From Bacteroidota bacterium (lineage in GTDB: Bacteria > Bacteroidota > Bacteroidia > UKL13-3): a stretch of DNA of 63,152 nucleotides. Below the pieces are notes generated by a model that did not search any database, had not been told where the DNA came from, and was given only the letters and a program-made list of their open reading frames with translations. Both the position numbers and the translations under genes were made by a program. Shown piece by piece: positions 51,274 through 60,653 of this stretch; the stretch's first letter is position 1; every line of letters starts with the position of its first letter. The DNA lies in NCBI GenBank assembly GCA_013298895.1, contig JAAFJM010000019.1, forward strand, positions 1 through 63,152, in the 5' to 3' direction.

Positions 51274-53763
51274 TTACAATCCTACAATTCTTTTCCAGAA
51301 TGATTTTTTAGGCTTTTCAATATCTTCGCCATATGTTCCATAACTAGCATATCCGCCATATCCATATCCATAGCCATAACCATAACCATATCCATAGCCG
51401 TATCCATAACCATTGCCATAACCATATCCATAAACAGGGGCAAAGTTTACATCGTTAAATACTATTCCAATATTTGAATTTTTATCAGTAGTATATAAAT
51501 CGTTAATTAGATTTAAATAGTTTCTACGACTTACTTTTTGGCGAACTATGTATAGATTTAAATCAGCATATTTCATCAAATCTAGTCCATCAGCCACTAA
51601 TCCAATCGGTGGGGTATCTAATAGAATGAAATCATATTTATCTTTCATTAACTCAAGTAAGTTGCTAAATTCTTCACTCATCAATAATTCTGATGGATTA
51701 GGAGGGGTAGGACCGGCAGTAATTACGTCTAATGTTGGTATATTACTTTTTTGAATTATTTGGTCAATAGTTGCTTTACCGATTAAATAATTTGTTAAAC
51801 CAACAGAGTTATTTAAGTTAAAATCTTGGAAAATTTTTGGTTTTCTTAAATCTACACCAATTAGCAATGTTCTTGCACCGCCAATGGCAATAACAGAAGC
51901 TAAATTCATGGAAACAAATGTTTTGCCCTCACCACTTACTGTAGATGTTACTAATATTATTTTTTTATCCTTTTTACTAATCAAATAATTTAAATTACTT
52001 CTTAAATTTCTAAATGATTCTGAAATACTAGCTTTCGGGCTGTTTGCAATAACCAACGCACTATTACTAGTATTGTGTATAATGTTGCCAACTAAAGGAA
52101 TTTTAGTAACAGATTGTAATTGCTGATGATTGATGATAGTATTACTGAAAAACTCAATGATTAAAATAATAATTAGAGGAATAATTAAACCTATAGCTAA
52201 AGCAATCGAATATATTGTTACTGTTTGAGGGTAGATTTTACCAGTCACTATTGTTTTATCAATTACTCTATTATCGGCAGTAACTGAGGCACCTGCAATA
52301 CCTGCTTCGGCTCTTTTTTCAAGTAGGTATGTATATAATTTATCACTTATATTGAATTTTCTATTGATATTCAAAAATTGACGTTCGGTTGTAGGTATAA
52401 TAAGTAATTCTTTTTCGCAAGCACCAATTTGCGATTGAAAGTCTGAAATAATTAATTGTGATTGTTTTTTGATGTTATTTAAATTTTCAATCAAAGACAA
52501 TTTAATATTTTGGATATTTTGATCAATTTCAAAGATAGCAGGATTTGCTTCTTTCATACTATTCTGATAAGTAATTTTTTTGGTATATAGCTCAGCTAAT
52601 TTTAGTATTAACGAATTTAGCAAAGGATCTACAATACCCATAGCACTTGGAGCTATTACTTCTTTAAAATTTTTATTTTTGTAAATATAATCGTATAAAT
52701 AAGAATAGTATTTAAACTTAGATTCTTCAATTGCTTTTTGGTTTTCAATGGTACTTAACTTAGTCATTATTAATCTACCTTCTTCACCTAAATTTACTAT
52801 TTTATTGTTGGCCTTAAAAGCCAATAATCTGCCTTCAACATTTTGTAAAGTATCTCTCAATTCGTTTAATTGAATATCAATAAAGCGTATAGTGTTTTTT
52901 GATATTTGTGCTTTATCATCTAATCCTTGACCAATGTATGTTTTACACAATGCATCAATAAATTCTGCATCTTTTTCAGGGTAATTAGTTTCTTTACTAA
53001 TTTCTACAATAGATGATTGTTTATTAATAGTTTTAACAGCAAAACTATTATTATATTTTTTTAGAAGCGATTCTCTTGTATTTAAAACAAAATAATGTTT
53101 ATTTTCAGTTTCTCCAATTATTTTTTTGTCAAGTAATGTAATTTTAATCTTAAGGTTTTCTAAAACAATGGGTTTAAGTATATTGAAAACTTTTTTATCA
53201 ATAGATCCATTTGCTTCTTTTACAGAATTTTCATTGTATGGAATTAATACTCTACCAGATTTCCCATTAGTGGTTATTTCAACTTGATTATTTGAAAGAA
53301 ATTTCAAGAAAATTGCTACACCATATATTTGAAAATGATTGGTATCTAATTCTACCAAAAAAGGTATATCATTGTACAATTCTACTTTTTTAACTTTACC
53401 TTCACCAAAGTAAGACACGTTAAAGTTTAGATTTTTTAATGTTTCCTCTACTAAAGTTCTTGACTTTAAAATACCGATTTCATTTTCAATATTTTTGCTT
53501 TGCATTAATAAAGATGAACCTTGTAAAAAACTTTCAGCCCCATCAAATGCACCCCTACCTTTGTCTTTAATTAATAAGGATGCCTTTAAAGCATAGCGGG
53601 GAGTTGCGTATCTATTTACCAAAAAAGCTACAGTGCATGCTATAATAATACTCACAATAAAAAAAGGTAAAAAGGCTAAAAACTTACCTAAGATAACTTT
53701 AAAATTCAAATTATTTTCTGCAATATTAGATTGTTGCATATCGTTTTGATTATTATTTTCCAT
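51274..53763 (-). CDS. wzc: Polysaccharide co-polymerase/tyrosine autokinase, Wzc-like
   Basis: The 829-residue protein has membrane helices near 31-50 and 515-540 enclosing a periplasmic Wzz-type domain with coiled-coil, then a cytoplasmic BY-kinase. Walker A is SGEGKT (610-615), Walker A' is LLIGVDLRKPK (633-643) and Walker B is FILLDTPP (712-719). The C-terminal tail (777-808) is an unusual run of Tyr-Gly repeats supplying over a dozen tyrosines for autophosphorylation. It controls chain length and export with the Wza-like protein, encoded 1 bp upstream. Confidence 0.93.
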   Translation of the reverse strand: MENNNQNDMQQSNIAENNLNFKVILGKFLAFLPFFIVSIIIACTVAFLVNRYATPRYALKASLLIKDKGRGAFDGAESFLQGSSLLMQSKNIENEIGILKSRTLVEETLKNLNFNVSYFGEGKVKKVELYNDIPFLVELDTNHFQIYGVAIFLKFLSNNQVEITTNGKSGRVLIPYNENSVKEANGSIDKKVFNILKPIVLENLKIKITLLDKKIIGETENKHYFVLNTRESLLKKYNNSFAVKTINKQSSIVEISKETNYPEKDAEFIDALCKTYIGQGLDDKAQISKNTIRFIDIQLNELRDTLQNVEGRLLAFKANNKIVNLGEEGRLIMTKLSTIENQKAIEESKFKYYSYLYDYIYKNKNFKEVIAPSAMGIVDPLLNSLILKLAELYTKKITYQNSMKEANPAIFEIDQNIQNIKLSLIENLNNIKKQSQLIISDFQSQIGACEKELLIIPTTERQFLNINRKFNISDKLYTYLLEKRAEAGIAGASVTADNRVIDKTIVTGKIYPQTVTIYSIALAIGLIIPLIIILIIEFFSNTIINHQQLQSVTKIPLVGNIIHNTSNSALVIANSPKASISESFRNLRSNLNYLISKKDKKIILVTSTVSGEGKTFVSMNLASVIAIGGARTLLIGVDLRKPKIFQDFNLNNSVGLTNYLIGKATIDQIIQKSNIPTLDVITAGPTPPNPSELLMSEEFSNLLELMKDKYDFILLDTPPIGLVADGLDLMKYADLNLYIVRQKVSRRNYLNLINDLYTTDKNSNIGIVFNDVNFAPVYGYGYGNGYGYGYGYGYGYGYGYGYGGYASYGTYGEDIEKPKKSFWKRIVGL
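51350..51432 (-). repeat. Hexanucleotide repeat encoding the Tyr-Gly tail
   Basis: About 83 bp made of imperfect tandem hexamers of the type ccatat/ccatag (plus strand), each encoding Tyr-Gly in the wzc-like tail. The unit is a multiple of three, so gain or loss keeps the frame and would change the number of tyrosines. Confidence 0.8.
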
Positions 53764-56099: not shown

Positions 56100-56495
56100 A
56101 TGAAAAAAATTGAGGTTGTTGCAGGAATTATTTATTTTGAGAATAAAATTTTATGCGTACAAAGACCCAAGAACAAACTTGCATATATTTCTGAGAAATT
56201 TGAATTTCCCGGAGGGAAAATCGAAAATGATGAAACTCAAATTGTTGCTTTAAAAAGGGAGTTGTTAGAAGAGTTAAATATTTTACCAAATATTCAATCG
56301 TTATTTCTTACTGTTGTTCATGAATATCCGGATTTTGAATTAACAATGCATAGTTATAAATGTGAAGTAAATAATATGGAAATTACGCTTAATGAGCATA
56401 TAGATTATAAATGGTTAACTGTAGAAGAACTAAATAAATTAGATTGGGCAGCTGCTGACATTCCAATAGTCAATAAATTAATAATTAATGAGTAA
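56100..56495 (+). CDS. NUDIX hydrolase (MutT-like)
   Basis: The 131-residue protein has a complete Nudix box at 39-61: G39, E45, and REL-L-EEL from Arg53 to Leu59. Its size and VVAGIIYFENKILCVQR start are those of MutT-type (d)NTP pyrophosphohydrolases. It could clear a modified or signalling nucleotide. Its stop codon overlaps the start of the helicase gene by 8 bp, so it is the first gene of a coupled three-gene operon with a nuclease-helicase and an HNH nuclease. This pairing implies a role in defence or repair rather than general pool cleaning. Confidence 0.9.
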   Translation: MKKIEVVAGIIYFENKILCVQRPKNKLAYISEKFEFPGGKIENDETQIVALKRELLEELNILPNIQSLFLTVVHEYPDFELTMHSYKCEVNNMEITLNEHIDYKWLTVEELNKLDWAAADIPIVNKLIINE

Positions 56496-59400
56496 CCTAA
56501 AAGAAATTTTTAATAATAGCCTACAAACTGGCTATGTTGATAAGACTATTATATCTGATGAAAATTTTCATCCTGAATTACTTGTAAATCAAAAAAATCC
56601 TCCTAAAAAAGTACTGCTAACCTTATTAAAAGAACTTGAAAATTGTGAAGAGTTTTGTTTTTCTGTTGCTTTTGTAACCACGAGCGGTGTTGCCACAATA
56701 ATTAATAAATTACAAGAACTAAATAATCGTAATATTCGAGGTCAAATTTTAGTTTCTCAATATTTAAATTTCTCACAACCTGAAGCGCTTAAAAGATTAT
56801 TACAATTTAAAAATATAGATTTACGTATAACAGTATCAGGTAATGCACATTCAAAAGGCTATATATTTAAAAAAAATAACCATTATAATTTAATTGTTGG
56901 AAGCAGTAATTTAACTGCTCAGGCATTAACAACAAATAAAGAATGGAATATTAAAGTTTCCGCTTTGGATAATAGTGGAATTGTTGAAAAAGTTCTTTCA
57001 GAATTTAAGTCAGATTTTAAAAAAGCAACTCAAGTTACAGTTGAATTTATATCAGCTTATGAGAAAACTTATAAGCAGCAAACACTTTTAAATAAGGAAA
57101 AGATATTTGAAAATTTAATAGAATCCGAAAATACTATCATTCCGAATTCAATGCAGGTTGAAGCATTGAAAAACCTAAACACATTAAGAGTTAACAAAAA
57201 GAACAAAGCTTTAATAATTTCTGCAACAGGAACAGGTAAAACATATTTATCCGCTTTTGATGCCAAAGTATTTAATCCTAAAAAGCTATTGTTTGTTGTA
57301 CATAGGTTAACTATTGCAAAAGATTCTTTAAAGACCTTTAAAAATATTTTCGGGGAGAAAAAAACAATGGGTTTGTATTCTGGTGAAAAAAGAGATTTAG
57401 ATTGCGATTTTGTGTTTTCTACAATTCAAACAATTTCAAAATCAACTCACTTAGAAAATTTCTCAAAGGACCATTTTGATTATATAATCATTGATGAAAC
57501 GCATAGATCAGGTGCTGATTCTTATTTGCGATTAATTAATTATTTTAAACCACAATTTCTTTTAGGAATGACAGCTACCCCTGAGAGAACTGATGGTAAT
57601 GATATTTTCAACCTGTTTGACCATAATATAGCTTATGAAATAAGATTAAATAGGGCTATGGAAGAAGAAATGCTAAGTTCATTTCATTATTATGGTGTAT
57701 CTGATTTGATTATTGAAAACAATAAGTTTGATAAAAAAACTGACTTTAACTTATTAATAGCTAATGAAAGAGTCAATAGAATAATTGAAAAGGCCAATTT
57801 CTATGGAAGTGATAACGGGATAACTCGAGGTTTGGTTTTTTGTTCAAGAAAGGATGAAGCAGTCGAATTATCTGCTTTGTTTAATTTGAATGGATTTAAA
57901 ACTCTAGCCTTAACAGGCGATAGTACAGAGGATGAACGAGCAATAGCAATTGAAAAATTAGAATCCGATAATTTAAAAGAAAAGTTAGATTATATTTTTA
58001 CTGTTGATATTTTCAATGAAGGTATTGATATTCCGAAAATCAATCAAATTATTATGCTTCGTCCTACCGAATCTGTTATAATATTTATTCAGCAATTAGG
58101 CAGAGGTTTGAGGAAAGTGGAAGGAAAAGGCTATTTAACAGTAATTGATTTCATTGGTAATTATGAGAATAACTATTTGATACCAGTTGCATTATATGGT
58201 GATACATCATACAATAAAGATTCTTTAAGGAAGCTAATTACAGAGGGAAGTAGGATGATTCCGGGATCTTCTACAATTAATTTTGATGAAATCACAAAGG
58301 AAAGAATTTTTCAATCTATAGATTCTGCCAATATGCAATTGTTTGCTGATTTGAAAAAGGATTATAATTTGTTGAAATTCAAGTTGGGTAGAATTCCAAT
58401 GATGATGGATTTTATTGAGCATGGTTCTAGAGATCCCTTTTTGTATGTTAATTACGCAAATTCATTTTACAATTTCATAGTTAAAGTGGAAAATGATTTT
58501 GAATCTGATTTATCAATTAATCAGATTAAACTCTTGGAATTATTCTCTAAGGAAATAAATAATTCTAAGCGAATTGAAGAAAGTTATATTCTTAACCAAT
58601 TGATATTAAAAGGAGAACTAAGTATTTTGGAATTTAAAAATTCAATTTTCAATTTATATGGTTATAAACCTAGTCAAGCTACAATTGATTCTTGTATTGT
58701 TAATATCAACTTTTTATTCATTCGGAAAAACGAAAAAGTAATATTTGTCGAAGAAAATTCATTTCAATTTTACAATGAATTCAATGAGAATTTAAAAAAT
58801 AATTTATTTAAAAAATTTCTATTGGATACAATAAATTACTCAATAAAAACTTTTGATAATTTATTCAGTAAAGAATATTACCAAAATGGATTAATTCTTT
58901 ATAATAAATATAGTAGAAAGGATGTTTGTAGATTATTAAATTGGGAAAAAGATATAAGTAGCACTGTATACGGCTACAGAACAAATGATGGAGTAACCCC
59001 TTGTTTTGTTACATATAACAAATCTGATGATATAGAAAGTACAATAAATTATAATGACCATTTCATTAATCAATCCACATTTGCATGGGAATCAAGGTCC
59101 AATAGAAAATTAAATAGTAATGAAATTAAAGGAGTTATTAATTCAGAGCGTATTTTATTGTTTGTAAAAAAAGAGGATGGAGAGGGAACAGATTTTTATT
59201 TTATGGGTGATGTAACAATAATACCTGATTCAATAGAACAAAGTTATATGCCTGTTTCTAATTTACCCGTTGTTCACTTTAAATTTCAACTTAAACAACC
59301 AGTAATTGATAGTATTTACAAGTATATTACAACTAGTAAAAAAGTAAAAACAATTGAACAAGTTTCTTTTAATTATGAAATTATTCCTGATGAAAATATT

Positions 59401-59853
59401 GATAATTCTAAGCAATTCATCCCTTTTTATGATTTTTACGCAGCAGCTGGTTCATTTAGCGAAATGCAATATGAAAAAGATTTTTCTTTAATTGAATTAA
59501 ATGAAAATATAAAAAATAATAAAGATTATTTTGCATGTAGAATAATCGGAGAATCAATGAACCGCATAATTCCAAATGGCTCAATTTGTTTATTTAAATT
59601 ATATACAGGTGGAAGTAGAAATGGAAAGATAGTTTTAGTTGAAAATTTTGATAATCAAGATCAAGATTTCAATTCTGCTTTTACTGTTAAGACTTATTCA
59701 AGTGAAAAAATTGTAACTGAGGAAGGTTGGGAACATAATTCGATTGTTTTAAGACCCAATTCATTTGATACTACTTATAAGAATATAATAATAAATGAAG
59801 AAGACGGCTCTAAAATGAGAGTTGTTGGGGAATTTGTTAAAATTATTAATTAA
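56488..59853 (+). CDS. PLD nuclease/SF2 helicase/DUF3427 protein with C-terminal S24 domain
   Basis: The 1121-residue protein has four parts. A PLD-type nuclease domain (about 30-190) carries HSK at 121-123 and GSSN at 138-141. An SF2 helicase core has ATGTGKT (246-252), DETH (336-339), TATPER (362-367) and QQLGRGLRK (535-543). A DUF3427 region spans about 600-940, with WESRSNRKLNS. A C-terminal S24/LexA-like domain has Ser1023 in GESMNRIIPNG and Lys1068 in FTVKTY. An AAAG site at 985-988 lies 35 residues before Ser1023, the spacing of LexA and UmuD self-cleavage. I infer a DNA-damage-responsive nuclease-helicase. Confidence 0.9.
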   Translation: MSNLKEIFNNSLQTGYVDKTIISDENFHPELLVNQKNPPKKVLLTLLKELENCEEFCFSVAFVTTSGVATIINKLQELNNRNIRGQILVSQYLNFSQPEALKRLLQFKNIDLRITVSGNAHSKGYIFKKNNHYNLIVGSSNLTAQALTTNKEWNIKVSALDNSGIVEKVLSEFKSDFKKATQVTVEFISAYEKTYKQQTLLNKEKIFENLIESENTIIPNSMQVEALKNLNTLRVNKKNKALIISATGTGKTYLSAFDAKVFNPKKLLFVVHRLTIAKDSLKTFKNIFGEKKTMGLYSGEKRDLDCDFVFSTIQTISKSTHLENFSKDHFDYIIIDETHRSGADSYLRLINYFKPQFLLGMTATPERTDGNDIFNLFDHNIAYEIRLNRAMEEEMLSSFHYYGVSDLIIENNKFDKKTDFNLLIANERVNRIIEKANFYGSDNGITRGLVFCSRKDEAVELSALFNLNGFKTLALTGDSTEDERAIAIEKLESDNLKEKLDYIFTVDIFNEGIDIPKINQIIMLRPTESVIIFIQQLGRGLRKVEGKGYLTVIDFIGNYENNYLIPVALYGDTSYNKDSLRKLITEGSRMIPGSSTINFDEITKERIFQSIDSANMQLFADLKKDYNLLKFKLGRIPMMMDFIEHGSRDPFLYVNYANSFYNFIVKVENDFESDLSINQIKLLELFSKEINNSKRIEESYILNQLILKGELSILEFKNSIFNLYGYKPSQATIDSCIVNINFLFIRKNEKVIFVEENSFQFYNEFNENLKNNLFKKFLLDTINYSIKTFDNLFSKEYYQNGLILYNKYSRKDVCRLLNWEKDISSTVYGYRTNDGVTPCFVTYNKSDDIESTINYNDHFINQSTFAWESRSNRKLNSNEIKGVINSERILLFVKKEDGEGTDFYFMGDVTIIPDSIEQSYMPVSNLPVVHFKFQLKQPVIDSIYKYITTSKKVKTIEQVSFNYEIIPDENIDNSKQFIPFYDFYAAAGSFSEMQYEKDFSLIELNENIKNNKDYFACRIIGESMNRIIPNGSICLFKLYTGGSRNGKIVLVENFDNQDQDFNSAFTVKTYSSEKIVTEEGWEHNSIVLRPNSFDTTYKNIIINEEDGSKMRVVGEFVKIIN

Positions 59854-59870: not shown

Positions 59871-60653
59871 ATGCCTTCAAAAAACCTTTGGACACGTGAG
59901 GAGTTAATTTTGGCTTTCAATCTGTATTTGAAATTGCCATTTGGTAAGATGCATTCGCGCACACCAGAAATTGTGGAGCTTGCTAATTTAATCGGTAGGA
60001 CAGCCAATTCTATAGCAATCAGATTAACTAATTTTGCTGCTTGTGACCCATTTCACCAAAATAGAGGTGTGAAGGGAATGGATGGTGGTAAAAAACAATG
60101 TCAACCTATTTGGGATGAATTTGCTAATAACCGAGAAACACTCATATTTGAAAGTGAACACATACTGGCTGAAAAGGAAAATCAAACCATAGATGATAAA
60201 TTTATTTCCATACTAGACGATATAAAAGACTTAAAAGGTGAAGTAAGGTTAAGGGAAGTAAAAACACGTGTTAATCAAAATTTTTTCAGGCAGTTAGTTT
60301 TAGCAAATTATAGTTCTAAATGTGCCCTAACAGGTATTGATATTCCTGAACTTTTATTTGCTAGTCATATTATACCTTGGTCAAAAAATGAACAAGAAAG
60401 ATTGAATCCTGAAAATGGTATTTGTCTTTCTGCCTTATACGATAAAGCTTTTGATAAAGGCTTGATTGGAATAAATGAAAAGCATGAAGTTATTATTTCT
60501 AAAGATTTGAAACAAAACCAAAACAAGGAATTTTATAAAACTCATTTTTCATGTTTTGAAAATGCCAAAATCAAATTGCCGGAAAAATTCTTACCTAATA
60601 AAACCTTCTTACAATATCATTTAGATGAAATTTTTTCTCTAAGAAATAAGTAA
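59871..60653 (+). CDS. HNH endonuclease
   Basis: The 260-residue protein has an N-terminal helical region (WTREELILAFNLYLKLPFGK, then ELANLIGRTANSIAIRLTNF) and a C-terminal HNH domain with CALTG (151-155), ASHIIPW holding His166, and NPENGICLSALYDKAFDKGLI. This is the HNH_2 type found with restriction and defence genes. It follows the helicase gene by 17 bp on the same strand and is likely co-transcribed. It probably cuts double-stranded DNA; specificity is unknown. Confidence 0.9.
   Translation: MPSKNLWTREELILAFNLYLKLPFGKMHSRTPEIVELANLIGRTANSIAIRLTNFAACDPFHQNRGVKGMDGGKKQCQPIWDEFANNRETLIFESEHILAEKENQTIDDKFISILDDIKDLKGEVRLREVKTRVNQNFFRQLVLANYSSKCALTGIDIPELLFASHIIPWSKNEQERLNPENGICLSALYDKAFDKGLIGINEKHEVIISKDLKQNQNKEFYKTHFSCFENAKIKLPEKFLPNKTFLQYHLDEIFSLRNK

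What the first reader, a model, noticed from the sequence alone, without database searches (positions are those of the whole stretch)
59430..59700. LexA/UmuD-like self-cleaving domain at the end of a nuclease-helicase
The last ~150 residues carry AAAG at 985-988, Ser1023 in GESM and Lys1068 in VKTY. The cleavage glycine lies 35 residues before the serine, matching LexA (Gly85 to Ser119, 34) and UmuD (Gly25 to Ser60, 35). RecA-type filaments could trigger cleavage between Ala987 and Gly988, separating the C-terminal part and activating or inactivating the enzyme. That would make a defence or repair nuclease with an SOS-type switch in the same polypeptide.
Basis: partly seen in the sequence, partly recalled or inferred. 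Interest (0 to 1): 0.85.

Follow-up and report, generated by a model that had tools for sequence, protein, structure and literature searches.

The report
Self-cleaving LexA-type domain on restriction enzymes
A DNA-cutting defence enzyme carries at its tail end the same kind of self-cutting domain that bacteria use to sense DNA damage, and relatives of this tail sit on several other defence enzymes, which suggests a built-in switch tied to DNA damage that has not yet been tested.

Summary
Gene 56488-59853 (+) encodes 1121 aa. Residues 1-948 align end to end with a 953-aa SauUSI-type restriction enzyme structure (7clg); residues about 977-1121 are a true S24 domain (Pfam over cut-off; LexA Z 14.4).

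The same S24 clade is C-terminal on SauUSI (27), Schlafen-group-3 helicases (11, plus 2 with the S24 in a separate ORF), type I HsdR (3) and a type III Res (1). In these 44 domains Ser and Lys are invariant and always 45 apart; Ala/Cys-Gly is kept in 42. They form one clade apart from the sampled stand-alone S24 proteins.

Cleavage would leave a complete SauUSI-like enzyme ending in -AAA. Alanine before the scissile residue is kept in 42 of 44, against 28 of 79 stand-alone S24 proteins; LexA is removed after its cut through latent ClpX signals. I therefore favour a post-translational off-switch (restriction alleviation). Cleavage, trigger and outcome are untested.

The parts
56100..56495 (+). 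Nudix (MutT-like) hydrolase, 131 aa, overlapping the next gene by 8 bases; regular partner of SauUSI relatives with or without S24
   Evidence: Pfam NUDIX_4 9.9e-17; PADLOC PDC-S07 1.2e-45; Nudix box in 35 of 35 scanned; directly upstream in 27 of 27 S24-bearing SauUSI loci
56488..59853 (+). SauUSI-like nuclease-helicase with C-terminal S24 domain, 1121 aa
56488..57057 (+). PLD nuclease domain (residues 1-190), His121 and Lys123 of the HxK motif
   Evidence: PLDc_2 at 67-176; H121 and K123 invariant in the 31 aligned sequences; SauUSI H119 and K121 (PMC7913695 section 24)
57139..58167 (+). SF2 helicase-like ATPase (residues about 218-560)
   Evidence: ResIII 218-367, Helicase_C 444-542; T247-T252 (TGTGKT) invariant in the 31 aligned sequences
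58543..59331 (+). DUF3427 (residues 686-948), in the place of SauUSI's coupler and target-recognition part
   Evidence: PF11907 9.6e-73; alignment to 7clg
59332..59415 (+). variable linker (residues 949-976) between the SauUSI part and S24
   Evidence: pLDDT under 50 at 951-974; linker dN/dS 0.20-1.27 in the 8 of 9 pairs where it could be computed
59416..59850 (+). S24 (LexA/UmuD-type) peptidase domain (residues 977-1121)
   Evidence: Pfam PF00717 over cut-off; fold; conservation
59446..59451 (+). predicted scissile bond Ala987-Gly988
59554..59556 (+). Ser1023, predicted nucleophile
   Evidence: Ser in 44 of 44 fused domains
59689..59691 (+). Lys1068, predicted general base
   Evidence: Lys in 44 of 44, always 45 after the Ser
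59871..60653 (+). HNH endonuclease gene directly downstream; probably a neighbour, not a fixed partner
   Evidence: HNH_2 6.6e-13; similar to a PT-DNA-binding restriction endonuclease model below its cut-off; HNH hit also near SauUSI genes in L035, L056 and L057

Best explanation
It is a SauUSI-type restriction enzyme (PLD nuclease, SF2 motor, DUF3427) with a LexA-type S24 self-cleaving domain on a flexible tether at its C-terminus. Proposed mechanism: (1) the intact enzyme attacks modified foreign DNA; (2) when host DNA is damaged or being cut, RecA filaments on single-stranded DNA bind the S24 domain and make it cut its own chain at Ala987-Gly988 with the Ser1023/Lys1068 dyad; (3) the enzyme part, residues 1-987, now ends in ...YAAA, a C-terminus like that of LexA's cut fragment (recalled) and like this organism's tmRNA tag (...MAA), and is unfolded and degraded by ClpXP. 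The result is a post-translational off-switch, a form of restriction alleviation that needs no new transcription and is written into the enzyme itself. The same module, one S24 clade, has been joined to other predicted NTP-driven restriction motors (type I HsdR, type III Res, Schlafen-group-3 helicases). Shown by computation: domain identity, catalytic set, purifying selection, one clade on at least four host enzymes. Inferred: self-cleavage (about 0.75), RecA as trigger (about 0.5), and turn-off rather than turn-on (about 0.6 if it cleaves).
For: S24 fold and cleavage region. Ser 44/44, Lys 44/44, Ala/Cys-Gly 42/44 over four host enzyme classes. Selection on S24 similar to the enzyme body while the linker is loose. 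The SauUSI part ends where the 953-aa enzyme ends (1-948 on 1-952), and SauUSI, described with four domains and no S24, is active (PMC7913695 abstract and section 24), so the S24 looks like an added regulator; on the enzyme tree the 27 S24-bearing proteins are one clade with 9 S24-less relatives outside (97/94). The residue before the scissile one (P2) is Ala in 42 of 44 fused domains but in 11 of 31 stand-alone S24 proteins of the phylum and 17 of 48 from viral contigs. tmRNA tag of the own genome: GESNFAMAA. Precedent: LexA cleavage reveals latent ClpX signals (PMC10584840, introduction passage; PMC5742171, passages); [quoted passage not shown] The host enzymes scanned all carry a predicted motor domain.
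Against: No cleavage, RecA binding or degradation was measured. Two of 44 fused domains have a changed site: Ala-Ser (L013) and Ala-Thr (L076). An S24 protein can act outside the RecA rule (IrvR, PMC7101444 abstract). EcoKI alleviation in E. coli does not depend on SOS activation (PMC11109961 section 22), so the analogy is of outcome, not of pathway. Degrons beside LexA-like cut sites can need more than two residues: tags of 4 residues from HdiR were inactive, 6 or more worked (PMC5742171 passage), so -AA alone may not suffice. P2=Ala also occurs in about a third of stand-alone S24 proteins and the fused domains share ancestry, so 42/44 is not 42 independent cases. The full-length model is poor in the S24 and motor regions, so docking or inhibition cannot be read from it. 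Published SOS-box motifs: one exact CTAA-N5-TTAG at 56430-56442, 58 bases before the fusion gene and inside the Nudix gene, none between 55488 and 56100; in relatives an exact motif lies within 900 bases upstream in 5 of 27 SauUSI-S24 genes (window included; L019 at the same place) and 2 of 10 Schlafen-type ones, so SOS transcription control is neither shown nor excluded.
Confidence: 0.45

Rival explanations
1. On-switch: the S24 domain holds the nuclease-helicase inactive, and RecA-triggered self-cleavage during infection or plasmid entry releases the active enzyme, as UmuD is activated to UmuD'.
For: The cut would free a complete SauUSI-like chain plus 39 residues. SauUSI shreds DNA and would be dangerous unrestrained (PMC7913695 abstract).
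Against: The freed enzyme would end in -AAA, a possible degron, and P2=Ala is kept in 42 of 44. SauUSI works without such a restraint, and modification-dependence already limits self-damage.
Confidence: 0.25
2. RecA tether: the S24 domain mainly brings the enzyme to RecA-coated or recombining DNA; self-cleavage is a release step or a by-product.
For: LexA, CI and UmuD domains solved bound to RecA filaments are among the closest structural matches (8gms, 8gmu, 8gmt).
Against: A mere binding domain would not need to keep Ser and Lys in 44 of 44 and the scissile pair in 42 of 44.
Confidence: 0.12
3. The S24 domain responds to something other than RecA (phage protein, modified nucleotide, oxidative signal), perhaps with the neighbouring Nudix or MazG-like gene controlling the signal.
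For: IrvR of S. mutans is presented as an exception to the RecA rule (PMC7101444 abstract). SauUSI-S24 and the GIY-YIG/Schlafen-type fusions each have an NTP pyrophosphohydrolase gene directly upstream.
Against: The Nudix partner also lies beside 9 SauUSI genes without an S24 domain found, so it is not tied to the S24.
Confidence: 0.12
4. Passive domain: a dead or purely dimerising S24 remnant.
For: LexA and UmuD domains dimerise (general knowledge); two members have changed cleavage sites.
Against: Ser and Lys 44/44, scissile pair 42/44; S24 dN/dS 0.07-0.22 in the 8 of 9 pairs where it could be computed. SauUSI already dimerises through its nuclease domains (PMC7913695 section 24).
Confidence: 0.06

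Closest known systems
SauUSI (type IV restriction enzyme, S. aureus; PDB 7clg by my reading, deposited as putative helicase)
   Same: Residues 1-948 align with 1-952 of its 953 residues, E 3.6e-226: PLD nuclease, SF2 motor, DUF3427/target-recognition part.
   Different: No S24 domain; it ends where the S24 tether begins here. Target specificity of the window protein is untested.
LexA, UmuD, lambda CI (peptidase family S24)
   Same: Fold, cleavage-site region, Ala-Gly, Ser-Lys; Gly-to-Ser spacing 35.
   Different: No HTH found and not UmuD-sized: the N-terminal part is a restriction enzyme. Separate clade from the stand-alone proteins sampled. Ser-Lys spacing 45 in all 44 fusions.
Non-canonical LexA proteins of Bacteroidetes (PMC8565304, abstract and sections 12 and 13 read)
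   Same: S24 repressors of the same phylum with the full cleavage set; one other S24 open frame of 260 aa is in this genome.
   Different: Those are HTH-S24 transcription repressors; here the S24 would act on the enzyme itself.
ClpXP-dependent restriction alleviation of EcoKI HsdR (PMC4231737 abstract and discussion; PMC11109961 abstract and section 22)
   Same: Proposed outcome: removal of a restriction motor by ClpXP to protect the host chromosome.
   Different: EcoKI's degron is unidentified; no S24 is mentioned in the parts that I read. Here the degron would be uncovered by self-cleavage.

Membership tests
Peptidase family S24 (LexA/UmuD/CI C-terminal domain) | S24 fold | tested here: met
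   Pfam over cut-off; Foldseek places 1-24 all LexA/CI/UmuD; LexA Z 14.4, rmsd 2.3, 119 residues
Peptidase family S24 (LexA/UmuD/CI C-terminal domain) | Ser-Lys dyad | tested here: met
   Ser1023 and Lys1068; 44/44 in the fused family
Peptidase family S24 (LexA/UmuD/CI C-terminal domain) | Ala-Gly or Cys-Gly scissile bond some 35 residues before Ser | tested here: met
   Ala987-Gly988, 35 before Ser1023; 42/44 over the fused family, spacing 33-37
Peptidase family S24 (LexA/UmuD/CI C-terminal domain) | self-cleavage stimulated by RecA filaments | not testable with these tools
   needs purified protein
[quoted passage not shown]
   N-terminal 948 residues are PLD, SF2 helicase and DUF3427; no HTH family among the hits
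SauUSI / mREase_IV | PLD nuclease + SF2 ATPase + DUF3427 in one chain | tested here: met
   (PADLOC mREase_IV 7.2e-234 over 1-948)
SauUSI / mREase_IV | catalytic HxK of the PLD domain and Walker A | tested here: met
   H121, K123 and T247-T252 invariant in the 31 aligned sequences
SauUSI / mREase_IV | cleaves m5C/hm5C DNA with ATP | not testable with these tools
   biochemical property
ClpXP-dependent restriction alleviation | motor subunit degraded by ClpXP after self-attack | not testable with these tools
   only the predicted -AAA end and the tmRNA tag -MAA are shown

The most novel reading that the evidence does not exclude
One lineage of LexA-type self-cleaving domain has become a portable control module bolted to the C-terminus of otherwise different restriction motors (types I, III and IV and GIY-YIG/Schlafen-type nuclease-helicases). 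It gives each a RecA-triggered self-destruct: a direct, transcription-free line from the DNA-damage signal to the defence enzyme, with the ClpXP degron built into the cut site.
Probability: 0.38. Interest if true: 0.88.

Novelty: new variant of a known kind. Interest (0 to 1): 0.74.

Why it matters
How restriction enzymes are stopped from destroying their own damaged chromosome is a standing question; for EcoKI the ClpXP degron in HsdR was sought and not found (PMC4231737). Here restriction motors carry a recognisable sensor-and-cut-site cassette in which single point mutations predict clean phenotypes, so the link between the DNA-damage signal and restriction becomes directly testable. If cleavage is shown, it would extend S24 self-cleavage from repressors and polymerase subunits to nucleases, and offer a transferable switch for controlling restriction enzymes.

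Tried and rejected
Considered and rejected: (a) chance motif matches: rejected by fold and family-wide conservation. (b) A mis-joined or read-through ORF: the 23 other S24-bearing full-length relatives aligned are 63-78% identical to it over their length and carry the same fusion. (c) Signal peptidase I, a related fold: lower in both structural lists. (d) SOS-box control: CTAA-N5-TTAG with one mismatch is near chance in the window (59 found, 51 expected), GGA-N5-TCC 9 found against 5 expected, none near the gene; the one exact CTAA match near the gene is not kept in most relatives. Left open rather than excluded.

Led nowhere: the full-length model (mean pLDDT 66.1, pTM 0.40) does not place the S24 relative to the enzyme. 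The viral-contig scan with alignment A1 gave 1 locus, with one L076 domain only itself, with A3 50 loci, of which L076 and L081 lie in long ORFs (1052 and 1200 aa) and the other 48 in ORFs of 142-259 aa. Plasmids: 1 record of 72,556, a Halomonas (the same record with two other queries). Phages: 25 records of 50,697; the 20 listed are annotated as repressors or regulators, 24-26% identity. The phylum of Clostridium akagii's genome (G296): 0 of 249 genomes at E<=1e-8, with no positive control in that set. Further phyla were not sampled as whole genomes. In the genome searches only the best first-look candidates of each genome were scored.

Rows dropped: of the 38 loci, 24 bear S24, 11 do not (L020, L027, L028, L030, L032-L038) and 3 cannot be told (L021 and L022 run off the contig; L031's frame ends early near residue 830). 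L003 and L004 are the same contigs as L056 and L057 and were counted once in the 44. The enzyme tree left out L032 and L036, which lack the N-terminal part. The domain tree used 31 stand-alone sequences: 20 of 30 PF00717 loci and 11 of 48 viral ones, thinned for near-copies out of the rows that passed the filter. The first P2 count lost 3 of 31 and 15 of 48 rows to that filter and understated Ala; I replaced it.

Papers: searches listed no paper that I recognised as describing an S24 domain fused to a restriction enzyme; the library is open-access PMC only and I saw listings, not the full texts. The main texts of PMC12839542, PMC10853773 and PMC7159879 hold neither S24 nor LexA (term searches).

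Full report
WHAT IS THERE. The ORF at 56488-59853 (+) encodes 1121 residues. Pfam finds PLDc_2, ResIII and Helicase_C, DUF3427 (686-948) and Peptidase_S24 over its cut-off. PADLOC assigns residues 1-948 to mREase_IV (E 7.2e-234). Against the PDB the best match is 7clg, 953 aa, aligned over query 1-948 and target 1-952 (E 3.6e-226). The file calls it a putative helicase; that it is the SauUSI structure of PMC7913695 (abstract and section 24 read) is my reading. So the S24 part begins, after a linker, where that enzyme ends.

THE S24 DOMAIN IS REAL AND COMPLETE. An AlphaFold2 model of residues 956-1121 on 26 sequences has mean pLDDT 75.4. Foldseek against the PDB has only LexA, lambda CI and UmuD in places 1-24. 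VIA-align gives LexA Z 14.4, rmsd 2.3 A over 119 residues, spanning the cleavage-site region. In an alignment of 18 diverse fused domains 14 columns are invariant; they include Ser1023 and Lys1068, and Ala987 and Gly988 are among 12 nearly invariant ones.

THE SAME DOMAIN ON OTHER RESTRICTION MOTORS. A search of the own genome found a second gene with the domain (43% identity): a Schlafen-group-3 helicase protein of 737 aa with a weak, below-cut-off GIY-YIG match. A profile search of 296 genomes of the window's phylum gave 13 matches in 12 genomes, all in open frames of 724-1217 aa. A second draw of 345 genomes (the phylum of G297, evidently the same phylum since the same places return) gave 17 matches in 15 genomes, in frames of 708-1217 aa except one of 246 aa that is part of a Schlafen-type gene split by a stop. 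By Pfam the hosts are SauUSI; Schlafen-group-3 helicase (11 intact; GIY-YIG matched in 10, 8 of them over its cut-off, none in L025's); type I HsdR (L079, L081, L152, with HsdM and HsdS genes beside L079 and HsdS beside L152); and type III Res with its methylase gene upstream (L076). PF00717 is under its cut-off in two of these (L078, L154) although the residues are all there. As a control, PF00717 in 61 genomes of the phylum gave 112 matches, 107 in frames of 315 aa or less; the other five are these fusions. In the own genome there are three S24 matches: one 260-aa frame and the two fusions.

CONSERVATION AND HISTORY. Forty-four fused domains were compared (27 SauUSI, 11 Schlafen-type, 2 Schlafen-type with the S24 in a separate ORF, 3 HsdR, 1 Res): Ser 44/44, Lys 44/44 and always 45 after Ser, Ala/Cys-Gly 42/44 (exceptions Ala-Ser in L013, Ala-Thr in L076). 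A maximum-likelihood tree puts the 44 in one clade (98/94) apart from 20 stand-alone proteins of the phylum and 11 viral-contig ones; its bootstrap had not fully settled, some viral rows are long, and two Schlafen-type rows (L025, L080) fall with HsdR and Res. On a tree of the enzyme part the 27 S24-bearing SauUSI proteins are one clade (97/94), with 9 S24-less relatives outside: one gain is enough for SauUSI. Of nine gene pairs, the eight that could be computed give S24 dN/dS 0.07-0.22, near the enzyme body (0.06-0.18 in nine), while the linker runs 0.20-1.27 (eight); synonymous change is close to saturation in several pairs.

PARTNER GENES. A Nudix gene lies directly upstream in all 27 S24-bearing SauUSI loci and in nine others without an S24 match (L020, L028, L030, L031, L033-L035, L037, L038; L031's frame ends early). 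It was not found at L036, whose gene lacks the first 248 residues, and could not be seen at L027 and L032, which start at the contig edge. So it belongs to SauUSI rather than to S24. Its catalytic box is intact in 35 of 35 scanned. The GIY-YIG/Schlafen-type fusions have a MazG-like gene directly upstream in 11 of 11 loci (L038, L051-L055, L077, L078, L153-L155, the broken L153 included); L025's Schlafen-type gene has none and L080 has one downstream. The MazG motif is present in 13 of 13 genes scanned. Two different NTP pyrophosphohydrolases thus accompany the two main hosts. Idea only: they could remove modified dNTPs that would mark host DNA for attack; the Nudix resembles a pyrimidine dNTP diphosphatase model, and others, below cut-off.

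MECHANISM. SauUSI is active without S24, so the domain is an added regulator. Cleavage would leave a complete enzyme ending -AAA. In LexA, cleavage reveals ClpX signals next to the cut (PMC10584840, passages; PMC5742171, passages). P2 is Ala in 42 of 44 fused domains against 11 of 31 stand-alone proteins of the phylum and 17 of 48 viral-contig proteins; the tmRNA tag of this genome ends -MAA. ClpXP removal of the HsdR motor is the known route of EcoKI restriction alleviation, its degron was not found, and the authors tie alleviation to motor enzymes (PMC4231737 abstract and discussion). The hosts scanned here all carry a predicted motor. Hence the off-switch is favoured. Against it: nothing was measured; short tags beside one LexA-like cut site were inactive; S24 action outside the RecA rule exists (PMC7101444 abstract); EcoKI alleviation is not SOS-dependent (PMC11109961 section 22); and the full-length model is too poor to judge inhibition. 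The on-switch stays a serious rival. SOS control of transcription is open: one exact published motif lies 58 bases before the fusion gene, inside the Nudix gene, and an exact motif occurs within 900 bases upstream in 5 of 27 SauUSI-S24 and 2 of 10 Schlafen-type genes.

NOVELTY. S24 peptidases and SauUSI are known; the searches named under Tried and rejected, in an open-access library only, listed no paper on their fusion. Domain databases may well hold such proteins without comment. I rate it a new variant of a known kind, with a fair chance that the portable-module reading is right.

Noticed in passing
L038 5604-11478; own genome contigs C11 and C45: L038 carries the Nudix + SauUSI pair (no S24) followed at once by the MazG + GIY-YIG/Schlafen + S24 pair; the own genome carries both fusion types on different contigs.
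   Followed up: partly
L079 3122-13912, L152 820-7570, L081 747-6444: The operons with HsdR-S24 also carry an AAA_21 ATPase gene before hsdR, in L152 followed by an HNH gene: a Septu-like pair (recalled name) nested in a type I restriction operon; the matching small gene in L079 and L081 gave no family hit.
   Followed up: partly
L076 1634-6495: A viral-contig record holds a type III Mod-Res pair whose Res ends in S24 with Ala-Thr at the cut site, so possibly a non-cleaving version.
   Followed up: no
L013 716-4165: SauUSI-S24 with Ala-Ser in place of Ala-Gly, Ser and Lys intact: a natural test of a changed cut site.
   Followed up: no
L020 6001-9024: Closest S24-less sister of the S24-bearing SauUSI clade; it has a short tail after DUF3427 without S24.
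   Followed up: no
L025: Record titled Rhizobium sp. Q54 MAG, but its genome groups with the window's phylum in the genome search and holds three S24 fusions: the title is probably wrong.
   Followed up: partly
window 51274-53763 (-): 829-aa exopolysaccharide-type tyrosine kinase (my reading of the sequence) with a long Gly-Tyr repeat near its C-terminus.
   Followed up: no
window 56430-56442: Exact match to the published Bacteroidetes SOS motif CTAA-N5-TTAG inside the Nudix gene, 58 bases before the fusion gene; L019 has one at the same place; 4 exact matches in the whole window.
   Followed up: partly
window 59871-60653 (+): HNH gene 17 bases after the S24 fusion, akin to modification-dependent HNH enzymes; weak HNH hits also near SauUSI in L035, L056 and L057.
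   Followed up: partly
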